NCBI RefSeq assembly: GCF_029267515.1
Contig: NZ_JAJUIS010000008.1
Coordinates: forward strand, 1-64,000
Source of the DNA: Seleniivibrio woodruffii
GTDB taxonomy: Bacteria > Chrysiogenota > Deferribacteres > Deferribacterales > Geovibrionaceae
DNA length: 64,000 nucleotides
Reading direction: 5' to 3'
In this document: positions 56,577 to 62,130 of the stretch, one piece after another
Layout: each line of letters begins with the position of its first letter
Position numbering within the stretch: the first letter of the stretch is position 1
Program-made: the position numbers and the translations under genes
The notes under the pieces: model-generated
Database searches by the model: none
Seen by the model: the letters and a program-made list of their open reading frames with translations, nothing else
What the model was told of the DNA's origin: nothing

Positions 56577-59500
56577 TTACAGATAATCAAGCAGACTTAC
56601 ATTTAAAAGCAGCGATGTTGATTTCAACGCATACTGGTAAGCCGTTTCGGCAACGGTAAGATCTGCCGAAGCCTGTGTCTGGTCTATAAGTGTCGATCCT
56701 GTATATTTAGCTTTAAGCTCCTCAGTGGTGAGCTTGAGCGATTCATTAAACGTCATTGCCGATTCAGCCTTGCTTGTGCTGTTGCCGACAGTGGTCAGCG
56801 CGGCAAGAACCTGAGATTCAGCCTGCGCCAGAACGTCCAGCTCATACTCTATTCCCGAACCGACTGCCGCTGTGAAAGAATCAGTGGCATAAAGGTATCC
56901 GGCGTCATAGTATTGATAAACACCGTCAGCCACATAATATTTCTCTCCGGCGGTATCCATCGTATAGGTGTTTATAAGCTCTCCGCTGTCGCCTGTAACC
57001 TTCATGGTCACAGCGTCGCCTGCCTTCGCAAAGCCCATAGTGCTTTCGTAGTCTCCTGAAATAGAGCTGCCTGTTACACCGTTGAAAGAAAAGCCTATGC
57101 TGTCTGTTCCCACCATTTCAGCCTGAACTATGCCGCTTATACCGGCATCGGCAAGTTTTTCGTTGATGTTGGTTATCATATCTTCATAGGTCATGAAATT
57201 TTCCGCATCAACCTCGATGCTGACAGTTTTGTCGGTACCGTCATTATAAGAGAACGTCAGGGTTCTTTCCTGAGAGTTCTTTTCGCTGAGATCCATAGTG
57301 ACAGCCGTTCTGCTTGTGATGGTATCTGCACCGGCCTTGTTGTAAAAACCGAGAGAACCTGCCGCATCACCTGAAACTATAATATCGGATGTCGGACCGG
57401 AAAATGAAATTAATTCTCCTGCTGCCATGGATGCAGTGAGTCCGGTTGCACCCAACTGAGAGTTTATCTCGGCAATCAACGCGGCGTTGTCCGCATAGTC
57501 AACGTTCGGAACGGTTACTGTTGCAGTCTGCCATGCAGCACCATCGTAATAGTTAATATCCAGCGTCGCGGGATTATCCAGATTACTGAGTTGCAAAGTG
57601 GGTGAAATTTCCGCTGTGGCGGGTTTAAGGTCGTCCATACCCATCACATATGCGGAAAGCTCGTCGTTATAGTTGACGTCTATTTCCATAGCTCCGGAAT
57701 TTGTGTCGATACGGAGCTGACCGTTATCGTTATAGGCCCGCACGCCCAGTTTCTGCAGATCATAGTCAGAATTTATCTGCGCAACAAAGTCTTCCAGTTT
57801 GTCGTCGGAAGTTGCCGCAGAGGAGGAATAGTTCTTCGTAACCTTTCCGTCGTCTGTATTAATAACCAGTTCAAAGCCCACGGTACCGACGTTCAGGTCG
57901 TTGAAATTTGATGATGTCCACTCCTGTTTTTTCTGGAGATAGAAATCGCTTTGAGATTCCGAATACTGAACTTCGAAATTAAATATCTCGTTATAGTTGC
58001 CCCTGAACTCACCGTCAAGCGATGGAACGGCTGTTGAATTCAGTGTCTCTTTATTCCATGAGCTTGGAGCACCTATCCCCGAATCGGGGATGTTCATCTC
58101 AAGAGCGTAGTAAAGGTTTTCAAGGGACTTGAAAACGTTTACGTTTTCACCCTTTTCCGTAATGTTAAGGTCGCCGAAGCTGAGGTTCGAGTTTGCCGTC
58201 AGGTCGATTGAGAAAGTAGTCGTAACGGGCGTTGCCGAACCTGCTATGGAACCGAGCTGCATCTTCACGCCGTTTCCGATATCTATGTCTCCGCCGTCAT
58301 AGTTCGCCTTTAATATCGGGTTGGCGGAATTATCGTATATTACGTTTCCGAGCTTGTCGGTAACTTTCACAGTAATGTCTGTGGCGCCTACGTTTACCAC
58401 AACGTCCCAACTGTCGTCTTTTTTGGAACTGTAATACCCTGACAGCATGATATCCGATGAGTTTTTCGCATAACCGATACCGGAGTTGTGTTCATCAACA
58501 GCAAACGAGAGCTTGCTCGTTCCGCTTCTGAGGTCTTTAAGCTGCAGTTTGCCGTCAACTATGGATGCGTCCACGGCGTTTCCGTACAGGTTTTCAATAT
58601 ATGCCAGCATATCGCTGATATTCTTTTCGTTATCCACCGGATAGTCGCTTCCGCGCGGTGTATCGAACTGATAGTCTGCTCCGACCTTTGTGGCGAGGTT
58701 CGTTTCATCGGTGTATTCCGCGTTAATCAGTTCGAAGGTTATGTCATACTGACCGGGAGTCGCCGTGTCTGTTACGGTGCCGTACACATCGAAACCCAAC
58801 CCGTTGTCCAGCAAAGACTGATTAAGAGCTGACTGAATGTCTGCTGCAGAACCGGAAGCGGGTGTAAAGCCTATGGTCTGACCGTTAACGGTGACCTCGG
58901 TATATACGCCGCCTGTTATGGCAACGTCGTTGTGTGTTGTAGTAACCGGACCGACATAATTGTCATATGACAGTTCAAAAGTCGTATCCATGCCGTTTGC
59001 CGTAACCGGCAAAGCGTTGAATCCCAGCTTATTGTTCTGGGAACCTGTGACGGATATCTGAACGCCTTCGCCTGTTCTGTTTGAAACAAACATTATTCTG
59101 TCGCCGTCGCTGACAGCAGACATCTCACCGCCAAGTCCCTGATTTTCAAGGCTTCTGTTTATATCGAAGATAACTTCGTCCATGTCGGAATAACCTTTCT
59201 GCGCAAGGGTCACCTGGTAGTCTCTGTTGGCGTATCTGACAGTTATTGTTCTTTCCTCTTCGGAAGCGGTCGCCATATCAAGGTTCACGTTTGATGGAGC
59301 GGAAACTTTCGCAGTACCGATGGCGTATCCGTTGTGGTCCGTACCGGAAAAACTTATGGAATCAGCGGTACTTACGTTTGCACCATCAATCTGCGTGAAC
59401 TTGGTGGTGTTCGTTATACCTATTCCGTTAACGGTGTTCCTTGTGGTTCCCTTTGTGGTTCTGTAAGTCTCCATAAAGGTTTCCTGACCGTTGACGTTTA

Positions 59501-60365
59501 TTACAACGTCCTGATTTGACGCTATTTTCGATGTTATCTTCCCGTCATCGCCAAGATAGGTGATGTCGTCACCGGGGGTATAGTAAAACTGCATTTTCAT
59601 GGTTGTACCGTCAACCAGACCTGAGGGGAGCTTGACCCCTACGCCTATGCCTGTGTTTATAACGGTTTCGCCCTCATACGCAGCAACCAGAGTCGTAGTG
59701 GTGATGTTGCCTGTGGTGGTGGTCTCATCCGAGCCGTTGCTGTCCAGAAGTACGGTCTTTCCAAGGGAATCTGTCATATTAAGATATGCAACACCGTCGA
59801 TGATGCTCATATTCATTGTGTACGAACCTTCGGAAAGTTCCGGCATATCGCCGTAAAGTCTTTTGGATATGGCTTCGGAACCTGAGATGTTGGAAACCAC
59901 GGCGGAAACCTCTCTGTCGCCGCTTACAAACGGCTCCGTCTGGGTTTCATATCCGGCAAAGACATATCTGCCGAGATATTGTGAATTTCCGATATCCTTC
60001 ATAGCATTAAGTATGGAAAGCACGTCGCCGGCAAGAGCTTTCCGGCTTTCGGCATTCTGGCTGTCGTTTCTGCCCGCGACTGCAAGTTCGTTCTTAGCTT
60101 TCGAAAGGTAGTCGTATGCGGTCTGAAGCAGGTTATCCTCGTTGTCCAGCCATGTCACGGCGTTTTCAGCGTTTCTGCCGTACTGTGTGGCATCGTTGGA
60201 CATTATCTGCATACCGTATGCAGTGACATAATATGTCGGGTCATCCTCCGGATTAAGCATGTTTCTTCCGGCAGTAACCCTTTCATTCGCATCCAGAAGA
60301 TTTGAAAGACTTCTGGCGTTACCTGACGTATATGTCATATGAACCATATTGGTTGTAATTCTCAT
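56577..60365 (-). CDS. flgL: Flagellar hook-filament junction protein FlgL (giant form)
   Basis: FlgL (HAP3) joins the hook to the filament. The N-terminus MRITTNMVHMTYTSGNARSL and VTAGRNMLNPEDDPTYYVTA (D0/D1) and the C-terminus LDVLAQAESQVLAALTTVGN and TVAETAYQYALKSTSLLLNV (D1/D0) are those of FlgL, which normally has about 300 residues. This one has 1262. The added ~1000 residues (about 150-1160) are mostly beta-rich with at least five Flagellin_IN-like units near 375-450, 490-545, 850-905, 940-1005 and 1035-1112. Examples are YEDMITNINEKLADAGISGI and NAALIAEINSQLGATGLTAS. It would expose a large surface domain at the junction. Confidence 0.93.
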   Translation of the reverse strand: MRITTNMVHMTYTSGNARSLSNLLDANERVTAGRNMLNPEDDPTYYVTAYGMQIMSNDATQYGRNAENAVTWLDNEDNLLQTAYDYLSKAKNELAVAGRNDSQNAESRKALAGDVLSILNAMKDIGNSQYLGRYVFAGYETQTEPFVSGDREVSAVVSNISGSEAISKRLYGDMPELSEGSYTMNMSIIDGVAYLNMTDSLGKTVLLDSNGSDETTTTGNITTTTLVAAYEGETVINTGIGVGVKLPSGLVDGTTMKMQFYYTPGDDITYLGDDGKITSKIASNQDVVINVNGQETFMETYRTTKGTTRNTVNGIGITNTTKFTQIDGANVSTADSISFSGTDHNGYAIGTAKVSAPSNVNLDMATASEEERTITVRYANRDYQVTLAQKGYSDMDEVIFDINRSLENQGLGGEMSAVSDGDRIMFVSNRTGEGVQISVTGSQNNKLGFNALPVTANGMDTTFELSYDNYVGPVTTTHNDVAITGGVYTEVTVNGQTIGFTPASGSAADIQSALNQSLLDNGLGFDVYGTVTDTATPGQYDITFELINAEYTDETNLATKVGADYQFDTPRGSDYPVDNEKNISDMLAYIENLYGNAVDASIVDGKLQLKDLRSGTSKLSFAVDEHNSGIGYAKNSSDIMLSGYYSSKKDDSWDVVVNVGATDITVKVTDKLGNVIYDNSANPILKANYDGGDIDIGNGVKMQLGSIAGSATPVTTTFSIDLTANSNLSFGDLNITEKGENVNVFKSLENLYYALEMNIPDSGIGAPSSWNKETLNSTAVPSLDGEFRGNYNEIFNFEVQYSESQSDFYLQKKQEWTSSNFNDLNVGTVGFELVINTDDGKVTKNYSSSAATSDDKLEDFVAQINSDYDLQKLGVRAYNDNGQLRIDTNSGAMEIDVNYNDELSAYVMGMDDLKPATAEISPTLQLSNLDNPATLDINYYDGAAWQTATVTVPNVDYADNAALIAEINSQLGATGLTASMAAGELISFSGPTSDIIVSGDAAGSLGFYNKAGADTITSRTAVTMDLSEKNSQERTLTFSYNDGTDKTVSIEVDAENFMTYEDMITNINEKLADAGISGIVQAEMVGTDSIGFSFNGVTGSSISGDYESTMGFAKAGDAVTMKVTGDSGELINTYTMDTAGEKYYVADGVYQYYDAGYLYATDSFTAAVGSGIEYELDVLAQAESQVLAALTTVGNSTSKAESAMTFNESLKLTTEELKAKYTGSTLIDQTQASADLTVAETAYQYALKSTSLLLNVSLLDYL

Positions 60366-60378
60366 GTCAGCCCCCTAA

Positions 60379-62130
60379 TTATCTGCCGCCGGTGCCAAGA
60401 CCGTTCACAATCTTGTCGATCATCTCGTCAATGACGTTGATGAATCTTGCGCTAGCTTCATACGCCCTCTGGAAACGGATTATTTCCGCCATCTCCTCAT
60501 CCAGCGAAACGCCTTTGATGCTCTCCAGCTTCAGTGAATATTCATCCACCAGATTCTCTTTTGTGGTAGCATAAGTATCTGCGGTGGCTTTATCGGTTGC
60601 TATAGTACCTATGAAGAGTGAATAAAACTCGTCAATAGTTACGTTCTGTTCAAAAACTTTTGTCCCCTTCAGATCGGCAATTGCCGCAGCGTTAGTGTTA
60701 TCGCCGACAGCACCTGACTGAGAAGTGGCAAGGTAGCTTATGTTCTCTTTTATCAGTGTTGAAACGTCTATATTGGAAGCGTCCTGACCGGAGAAAAAGC
60801 CATATGTACCTGACGCAACAAGAATACCGGAAGTATCCTCCGCAAAGGAGAAAGTATAGCCTGATTCAGAGGTTATCTTGAGCGTGTTGCTCTGCGAAAG
60901 GGAAGCCTGTACCAGGCCGCCGTTGGGGTTTCCGTCGGCGTACGATATTTTCGATATGATGGAGTTCAGCGAATCCTTTGACGGGTCTATCTCTATGTCA
61001 AGGTTCTCCACCACGTTGCCTTCGCTGTCGTATACGGAGATACGCAGCACTCCGGCATTAACGGCTGTAGGCAGTGCACCTGCCGGTTCGTTAAGAGGAT
61101 ATGATGCGTTTTTTACTCCTGTGGAAGAAGTTATCTGAGTAAGCCTGTCTGAACCCTGACCAAGAGCGTGAAGCTCGTTTGTTGCTGTTATAAGTGTGGA
61201 AGCGAGATCGTTAAGCTGATCCTTATAGGTCTGAGCAAGGTTGTCACGCACCTCCAGTTCGCCGCCTATCTTGCCGGAACTGAAAGCGGATGTGATGTCA
61301 ACTCCCTGCGGTCCTGTTGTTTTTGATCCCCAGTAGATGCTCACATCGGTATCGGAACCGGATGTCTGAGCAGCAGTAAGAGTGAACGCATTACCCTCGT
61401 CAACAAGGGCGTTACCTCCGACATAAACTGCAACCTGTCCTGACGAACGCTCAGTAACTGTTATATTGGCAAGTTCCGAAAGGTCGTTAAGAAGCATCTC
61501 ACGCTGATCTCTCAGATCGTTCGCCATTGAGCCTGTCGCCTCTATGAGCGCTATCTGACCGTTCAGATATGATATGTTTTGTGAGATGGAATTTATTTCG
61601 GAAACATAGTCTTTAATGTTATCGTTGGACTGGCTCTGCATATCCTCAAGAGCGGAATAGCTCGCGCGTATCTTCTCTGCAAGAACGGACGCTTTCTCAA
61701 TTACCGTCTGTTTCTTGATGAGCGCCTCGTCGGATTCATCGGTGGCAGTGTTCGCAAGGTCGCTCCACGCATCGAAATATTCCGACATAGCCTCTCCGAG
61801 ACCGGAACCGTCTTCAAGCTCATTGAAGTATATCTCAATGTTGGTCAGCGTGTCCTGCATCGTCGTATAATACGCCAGATCGGACGTTTCCGTCCGTATG
61901 GTTGACGCAAGAACCGCGTCGTAGACCTGCACAACGTTCTCAACGGTTACGCCGCGTCCGAAAACTCCGTAGCTTGTGAGCTGGGAGTTGGAAGTTACAA
62001 GGCTGACCCTCTGTCTCGAATACCCTTCGGTGTTGACGTTTGTGATGTTGTTACCCGCAACATCAATCTGCGCCTGCGATGCAAAGAGCCCGGATACGCC
62101 TGTGGATAATATTCCTAATATGTTTCCCAT
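60379..62130 (-). CDS. flgK: Flagellar hook-associated protein 1 FlgK
   Basis: FlgK (HAP1) forms the first junction ring between hook and filament. The 583 residues begin NILGILSTGVSGLFASQAQI followed by DVAGNNITNVNTEGYSRQRV (Flg_bb_rod motif). SYLNGQIALIEATGSMANDL and RDQREMLLNDLSELANITVT are typical of FlgK. The C-terminal end EEMAEIIRFQRAYEASARFI with NVIDEMIDKIVNGLG is the conserved D0 helix. A size of 583 is normal. It is 13 nt upstream of flgL. Confidence 0.97.
   Translation of the reverse strand: MGNILGILSTGVSGLFASQAQIDVAGNNITNVNTEGYSRQRVSLVTSNSQLTSYGVFGRGVTVENVVQVYDAVLASTIRTETSDLAYYTTMQDTLTNIEIYFNELEDGSGLGEAMSEYFDAWSDLANTATDESDEALIKKQTVIEKASVLAEKIRASYSALEDMQSQSNDNIKDYVSEINSISQNISYLNGQIALIEATGSMANDLRDQREMLLNDLSELANITVTERSSGQVAVYVGGNALVDEGNAFTLTAAQTSGSDTDVSIYWGSKTTGPQGVDITSAFSSGKIGGELEVRDNLAQTYKDQLNDLASTLITATNELHALGQGSDRLTQITSSTGVKNASYPLNEPAGALPTAVNAGVLRISVYDSEGNVVENLDIEIDPSKDSLNSIISKISYADGNPNGGLVQASLSQSNTLKITSESGYTFSFAEDTSGILVASGTYGFFSGQDASNIDVSTLIKENISYLATSQSGAVGDNTNAAAIADLKGTKVFEQNVTIDEFYSLFIGTIATDKATADTYATTKENLVDEYSLKLESIKGVSLDEEMAEIIRFQRAYEASARFINVIDEMIDKIVNGLGTGGR

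What the first reader, a model, noticed from the sequence alone, without database searches (positions are those of the whole stretch)
56577..60365. Giant FlgL of 1262 residues with repeated Flagellin_IN-like units
Normal FlgL is about 300 residues. Here about 1000 residues are inserted between intact D0/D1 ends. At least five units follow the pattern '..y.dmi..IN..L...gi.a...g..l.fs....i.i.g.....GF', the same building block that decorates some flagellins and FliD. The hook-filament junction would have only eleven copies of such a domain, so a special task (adhesion, sheath contact, phage or host interaction, or mechanical stiffening) is likely.
Basis: partly seen in the sequence, partly recalled or inferred. 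Interest (0 to 1): 0.6.

Follow-up and report, generated by a model that had tools for sequence, protein, structure and literature searches.

The report
Giant FlgL collar of thick flagella
This gene codes for a four-times-oversized version of the ring protein that joins the flagellar hook to its propeller; the oversizing is shared by the whole bacterial phylum and, across unrelated bacteria, appears together with oversized propeller subunits, which suggests a size-matched collar rather than a one-off adhesin.

Summary
Window 56577-60365, minus strand, is one uninterrupted 1262-codon flgL in a flgM-flgN-flgK-flgL-fliW-csrA block. The D0/D1 ends are intact and about 1016 residues lie between them. 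Of the five IN-like units, three (U1, U4, U5) are proven homologous. Two (U2, U3) rest on predicted topology and weak profile scores.

It is not an oddity of this genome. Near-complete FlgLs throughout the phylum are 1142-1544 residues, and near relatives align end to end, so a joining error is excluded. The insert is conserved, not hypervariable, which weakens the adhesin, host and phage ideas.

Across 69 genomes outside the phylum, FlgL length tracks flagellin length (phylogenetic contrasts r=0.64, p=4e-9). The relation is a threshold one: FlgL of 900 or more residues occurs only with flagellins of about 750 or more, in about six lineages. A prediction noted before a hold-out search held. 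The insert shares no detectable sequence with the flagellin outer domain.

Best reading: an 11-copy outer collar that matches the junction to a thick filament and a large cap. Contact is inferred, not shown. Geovibrio thiophilus, whose filament is solved (9AU6), also encodes a ~1400-residue FlgL, so this is directly testable.

The parts
56577..60365 (-). flgL, hook-filament junction protein, 1262 aa (stop codon 56577-56579)
   Evidence: single ORF; TIGR02550 FlgL equivalog above cut-off; full-length orthologues in independent assemblies
59925..60365 (-). N-terminal D0/D1, residues 1-147
   Evidence: Flagellin_N 42.3 bits; Salmonella FlgL 9go6 aligned 1-148; D1 helices in model
59265..59924 (-). 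first insert domain (residues 148-367), containing the FlgL-type D2 motif YxGDxGxIxxKI...VxINVxGxxxF at residues 266-307
   Evidence: motif shared with FlgLs of other phyla; strongly conserved in the phylum alignment
58998..59264 (-). IN-like unit U1, residues 368-456
   Evidence: HMM of U1 finds U5 with 19.9 bits; shuffle maximum 7.2
58650..58910 (-). probable IN-like unit U2, residues 486-572
   Evidence: topology in model; hhalign U2-U5 probability 74.5, HMM score within the shuffle range
58146..58649 (-). conserved middle region, residues 573-740 (helix-strand motif ISDMLxxIExLYGNxVxAxxxxGxLQxxDLRSG, then FlgL D2-like sandwich strands)
   Evidence: weak profile match of 583-627 to C. jejuni FlgL 9gsx (i-E 0.023) and of 619-722 to Xanthomonas FlgL D2, 5ziz (1.6 bits)
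57855..58145 (-). conserved linker region, residues 741-837 (NVF.SL.NLYxAL... LDGEFRGNYN)
   Evidence: conserved in alignment A1; 93/89/79% identity to three congeners
57588..57854 (-). probable IN-like unit U3, residues 838-926
   Evidence: topology in the model; HMM score within the shuffle range
57330..57578 (-). IN-like unit U4, residues 930-1012 (absent in some families of the phylum)
   Evidence: Flagellin_IN 28.8 bits, above cut-off; U4-U5 hhalign 99%, E 1.9e-18; gap in five of 15 sequences of A1
57018..57278 (-). IN-like unit U5, residues 1030-1116
   Evidence: HMM of U5 finds U4 with 44.9 bits and U1 with 32.1 bits; shuffle maximum 8.2
56580..56870 (-). C-terminal D1/D0, residues 1166-1262
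   Evidence: C-terminal match to FlgL 9gsx; long D1 helix in model; Flagellin_C found in 6 of 15 orthologues
60379..62130 (-). flgK (583 aa), directly upstream
   Evidence: TIGR02492 353 bits
62162..62641 (-). flgN, export chaperone of FlgK/FlgL
   Evidence: PF05130 43.8 bits
62710..63009 (-). flgM, anti-sigma-28
   Evidence: PF04316 71.4 bits
56059..56529 (-). fliW
   Evidence: PF02623 131 bits
55813..56043 (-). csrA
   Evidence: PF02599 94.3 bits

Best explanation
This is a genuine FlgL whose outer (D2-type) domain has grown into a ~109 kDa multi-domain arm. SHOWN by computation: FlgL identity, intact polymerisation ends, an insert built partly of duplicated IN-type beta-beta-alpha-beta-beta-beta units, presence throughout the phylum, purifying constraint, and co-occurrence of giant FlgL with giant flagellin in about six lineages. 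INFERRED: eleven copies form an outer collar at the hook-filament junction. The collar matches the radius and surface of a thick filament (own flagellins of 793-800 aa, 62% and 51% identical to the Geovibrio thiophilus flagellin of structure 9AU6) and seats the enlarged FliD cap (896 aa) when filament growth starts. It would spread load between the thin junction core and the wide filament, and give the outer domains of the first flagellin turn a partner or a stop.
For: FlgL equivalog and operon context. Phylum-wide giant size. FlgL length against flagellin length: 64 families, log-log r=0.69; 69 genomes outside the phylum, independent contrasts on a FlgK tree r=0.64, p=4e-9, against 0.40 for FlgK. 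FlgL >=900 and median flagellin >=750 coincide in 15 genomes and are both absent in the other 61; about 6 parsimony changes; partial correlation given FliD 0.62. Prediction noted in advance and met: the only two giants in the hold-out set have 1137/1144-aa flagellins, no other flagellin there exceeds 620. Giant flagellins thicken filaments (PMC6248924). FlgL D2 is exposed on the outside of the junction, and the bulky D2 of Campylobacter FlgL limits cap domain movement (PMC12221982). FlgL D2 was already proposed to reinforce the junction (PMC6155364). Insert conserved within the genus and across families.
Against: No contact is shown. FlgL insert and flagellin insert share no detectable sequence. 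The correlation vanishes when FlgL >=700 is left out (r=0.15, p=0.27), so it is a threshold, not a smooth scaling, and the cut-offs 900/750 were chosen after seeing the data. FliD also enlarges with flagellin (contrast r=0.51), so part of the signal may be general growth of exported proteins. Flagellins of 621-684 aa occur with a small FlgL (G094, G183), and two Oceanospirillales with giant flagellins have a 'shorter' FlgL of unstated length. Lengths are stop-to-stop frames or match spans.
Confidence: 0.55

Rival explanations
1. General accretion: lineages that tolerate large outer domains enlarge all late export substrates (FliC, FliD, FlgL) independently, e.g. because of permissive export or selection for surface area. 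No direct fit between FlgL and the filament is involved.
For: FliD also correlates with flagellin (contrast r=0.51) and FlgK does so weakly (0.40). There is no sequence homology between FlgL and flagellin inserts.
Against: The FlgL-flagellin relation survives conditioning on FliD (partial 0.62). FlgK, the other junction protein exported by the same route, stays 583 aa in this genome.
Confidence: 0.25
2. The arm is an adhesin or a host/phage interaction module displayed at the flagellar base.
For: The insert is on the outside by homology (PMC12221982); beta-rich repeats are common in adhesins (general knowledge); the phylum includes the gut-associated Mucispirillum schaedleri with 1471 aa.
Against: The insert is conserved, not hypervariable (dN 0.03-0.06 in the closest pair; conserved columns across families). 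Only ~11 copies per flagellum. It is giant throughout the phylum and tracks flagellin size in unrelated lineages.
Confidence: 0.1
3. The arm mainly serves the cap: the bulky D2 holds the FliD pentamer in the right geometry to place the first large flagellin, and matters little once the filament has grown.
For: In C. jejuni the FliD D4 domain lies between D3 and an FlgL subunit, and bulky FlgL D2 may prevent D3 from dropping into the gap (PMC12221982). Own FliD is 896 aa. FliD covaries with flagellin.
Against: FlgL-FliD contrast r (0.40) is lower than FlgL-flagellin (0.69).
Confidence: 0.09
4. Artefact: fusion of two genes by misassembly, or a misannotated flagellin.
For: FlgL and flagellin are often confused (PMC7018530).
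Against: Full-length orthologues in independent assemblies; FlgL equivalog score; directly downstream of flgK; real flagellins lie elsewhere in the genome.
Confidence: 0.01

Closest known systems
Campylobacter jejuni FlgL (750 aa, structure 9GSX; genus and relatives 750-950 aa, PMC5691160)
   Same: FlgL with intact D0/D1 and an enlarged bulky D2; weak profile match in the middle region (residues 583-627, i-E 0.023) and at the C-terminus; among the fold hits
   Different: Window protein is ~500 residues longer, with a three- to five-unit IN-like array; most of the insert is not detectably homologous
Ordinary FlgL: Salmonella 9GO6 (317 aa), Xanthomonas 5ZIZ and Legionella 7C7Z/5YTI
   Same: D0/D1 match along residues 1-148; D2 motif at 266-307
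   Different: No or one small D2 domain (PMC6155364), no repeat array
FliD and flagellins with Flagellin_IN / D2-D3 domains (6IWY, H. pylori FliD, is the best fold hit of the U3-U5 fragment)
   Same: Foldseek E 1.2e-4 and probability 1.00 for the fragment; Flagellin_IN above cut-off for U4
   Different: TM-scores are low (0.21-0.26), so this is local resemblance; different protein and position in the flagellum
Giant flagellins (PMC6248924) and the Geovibrio thiophilus filament (9AU6)
   Same: Oversized outer domain of a flagellar axial protein; same family of bacteria; own flagellin 62% identical to 9AU6
   Different: FlgL insert shows no detectable homology to the flagellin insert

Membership tests
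FlgL (hook-associated protein 3, TIGR02550) | equivalog profile score above curated cut-off | tested here: met
   141.6 against 127.2 bits
FlgL (hook-associated protein 3, TIGR02550) | conserved N- and C-terminal D0/D1 helices | tested here: met
   alignment with solved FlgLs and helices in the model
FlgL (hook-associated protein 3, TIGR02550) | genomic place directly after flgK, with flgN | tested here: met
   flgM-flgN-flgK-flgL-fliW-csrA
FlgL (hook-associated protein 3, TIGR02550) | 11 copies at the hook-filament junction | not testable with these tools
   known for Salmonella and Campylobacter (PMC12221982); inferred here
Flagellin_IN repeat (PF07196) | profile score above gathering cut-off | tested here: inconclusive
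   unit U4 28.8 bits above the 22.7 cut-off in the six-frame search, whole protein 20.6 below; only 2 of 15 orthologues at E<=0.01
Flagellin_IN repeat (PF07196) | units homologous to each other | tested here: inconclusive
   U1, U4, U5 met (19.9-44.9 bits against a shuffle maximum of about 8); U2, U3 not met by sequence
Giant flagellin (FliC) | best match is flagellin, not FlgL | tested here: not met
   FlgL equivalog; Flagellin_N only 48.5 bits against 154-159 for the real flagellins
Campylobacterota-type FlgL (NF006265) | profile score above curated cut-off (749) | tested here: not met
   61.3 bits

The most novel reading that the evidence does not exclude
The size of the FlgL outer domain is locked to that of flagellin by direct fit: bacteria that thicken their filament must repeatedly and independently evolve an outer collar at the junction (and a larger cap), out of unrelated modules, so that FlgL length predicts filament architecture from the genome.
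Probability: 0.4. Interest if true: 0.7.

Novelty: new variant of a known kind. Interest (0 to 1): 0.5.

Why it matters
Junction studies rest on Salmonella, whose FlgL has 317 residues, and on a 6.5 A Campylobacter map. A whole phylum with 1142-1544-residue FlgL, and a rule linking giant FlgL to giant flagellin in about six lineages, turns an annotation curiosity into a testable structural principle: why a filament's outer surface needs a matching base. I found no report of this link in the held open-access library, which lacks most subscription papers.

Tried and rejected
Misassembly or gene fusion: rejected (orthologues). A 3226-aa FlgL frame in G018: the fetched stretch contains N runs, so it is taken as an artefact. 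Homology between FlgL insert and own flagellin or FliD: searched with hhalign and blastp, none. Giants of other phyla being homologous inserts (transfer): mostly not; D0/D1 and often the D2 motif are shared, with some extra similarity in G261. Smooth scaling of FlgL with flagellin: rejected, since the correlation vanishes below FlgL 700. Clostridial FlgL relatives (L051-L055, ~470 aa) as an intermediate: only the ends align. Phylum-wide samples around G066 and G158 for a large within-phylum test: those phyla yielded only 4 and 3 genomes. A published description of structure 9AU6: not in the library. dN/dS ratios: dS is near saturation, so only dN and identity are used. C. jejuni FlgL as a reported adhesin: in PMC7143056 the flgL mutant serves only as a non-motile, secretion-negative control.
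Full report
OBSERVATION. The ORF at 56577-60365 is on the minus strand and encodes 1262 residues without interruption. It passes the FlgL equivalog model and follows flgK at once, with flgN and flgM upstream and fliW and csrA downstream. The window belongs to a genome with close relatives named Seleniivibrio sp. and Deferribacteraceae. Residues 1-147 and ~1166-1262 are ordinary D0/D1. The AlphaFold model of residues 40-1230 (mean pLDDT 75, pTM 0.40) has the D1 helices at both ends and a long, flexible chain of beta-rich domains between them. The insert is 109 kDa against 27 kDa for the ends.

REPEATS. I built HMMs from alignment blocks of 15 orthologues and scanned the protein and 500 shuffles of its insert. 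U4 and U5 find each other and U1 far above the shuffles (U5 HMM: U4 44.9 bits, U1 32.1 bits; best shuffle 8.2). U1 finds U5 (19.9 bits) but not U4 (6.6 bits), although U4 finds U1 (27.6 bits). U2 and U3 are within the shuffle range and rest on predicted topology. Pfam Flagellin_IN reaches its cut-off for U4 only. A separate model of residues 836-1122 (pLDDT 79.5) finds Helicobacter FliD first in the PDB (E 1.2e-4, probability 1.00) but with low TM-scores. So 'Flagellin_IN-like' is fair for three units and probable for two. Unit U4 is missing in some families (L018-L022), and the U3-U5 region is about 100 residues longer in three of the four Mucispirillum sequences compared, so the array is modular.

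DISTRIBUTION. Of 51 genomes of the phylum, 49 hold a match to the FlgL model (which also rings for flagellins) and two, both of genus g6, have none. Near-complete FlgL frames are 1142-1544 aa, median 1405 over 42 of them. The relatives of the same genus align end to end at 58-93% identity. Outside the phylum, 88 FlgLs have a median length of 368 aa; 8 reach 900 aa and one reaches 1142. Papers already report 750-950 aa for Campylobacter and relatives (PMC5691160).

CONSTRAINT. Against three congeners, the first insert domain keeps 94, 82 and 74% identity, compared with 97, 93 and 90% in N-terminal D0/D1. dN is about 0.03-0.06 across the insert in the closest pair. dS is near saturation, so ratios are only indicative. 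The third-position GC of the insert equals that of flgK (0.53 and 0.53). Nothing suggests recent acquisition or arms-race evolution.

SIZE MATCHING. I compared FlgL length with flagellin length in the same genomes. Over 64 families outside the phylum the log-log correlation is 0.69. On a FlgK tree built from sequences taken, independent contrasts give r=0.64 (68 contrasts, p=4e-9) for FlgL-flagellin and 0.40 for FlgK-flagellin. Without the giants it is not significant (0.15), so the relation is a threshold: FlgL >=900 and median flagellin >=750 occur together in 15 genomes and are both absent in the other 61, with about six changes on the tree. FliD length correlates with flagellin too (0.51), but the FlgL-flagellin relation remains when FliD is held constant (0.62). 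Of the ten giants outside the phylum (FlgL >=700) for which FlgK was also located, nine have FlgL next to flgK and only G221 does not (positions), so they are not misread flagellins. The cut-offs were chosen after seeing the data. I therefore wrote down a prediction and tested 19 genomes not used before: the two with FlgL 911 and 1015 have flagellins of 1137 and 1144 aa, and no other has a flagellin above 620 aa. These two share one family and the phylum of G066, so they are not a further independent lineage beyond that phylum; two of the 19 (G262, G303) showed no flagellin beyond FlgL itself and two (G077, G139) only short fragments. Known exceptions or grey cases: G094 and G183 (flagellin 621-684, small FlgL) and the Oceanospirillales of PMC6248924, whose FlgL is described only as shorter.

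HOMOLOGY OF INSERTS. The inserts of other giants share D0/D1 and often the D2 motif at 266-307 with this one, and little else, apart from some similarity in G261. The insert has no detectable homology with the own flagellin or FliD. Large FlgL therefore seems to have been built several times from different modules, as expected if size or radius rather than a particular binding site is selected. This is inference.

MECHANISM. Eleven FlgL form the distal layer of the junction, with D2 exposed (PMC12221982). In Campylobacter the bulky FlgL D2 may limit how far FliD domains can drop (same paper). Giant flagellins thicken filaments (PMC6248924). The own flagellin (793 aa) is 62% identical to the Geovibrio thiophilus flagellin whose filament is in the PDB as 9AU6, and the genome carrying that flagellin at 100% identity also has a ~1400-aa FlgL. 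I conclude that the arm most likely forms an outer collar matched to a thick filament and a large cap. Whether it bears load, seats the cap or only follows a general growth of exported proteins cannot be decided from sequence.

Noticed in passing
G000:C34:1-1216 and G000:C28:1-1216 (loci L001, L004): Two further flagellin genes run off contig starts (frames of 435 and 450 aa), so the genome has at least four flagellin genes, possibly near-identical copies that broke the assembly.
   Followed up: no
L062:1580-4267 (G000 contig 29): Own FliD is 896 aa; in the genomes compared, frames of about 450-700 aa are common. FliD length also covaries with flagellin length.
   Followed up: yes
G013 and G020 (genus g6): Two 99% complete genomes of the order have no match to the FlgL model, while a third genome of the genus (G027) has a 1175-aa FlgL: probably a loss of flagella within one genus.
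   Followed up: partly
L023 (G018 contig 3): A 3226-aa FlgL frame; the fetched stretch contains runs of N, so the length is likely an assembly artefact.
   Followed up: partly
G305 contig 38 and G306 contig 21: Flagellins of 1137 and 1144 aa with FlgL of 911 and 1015 aa in a small unnamed phylum (four genomes held).
   Followed up: no
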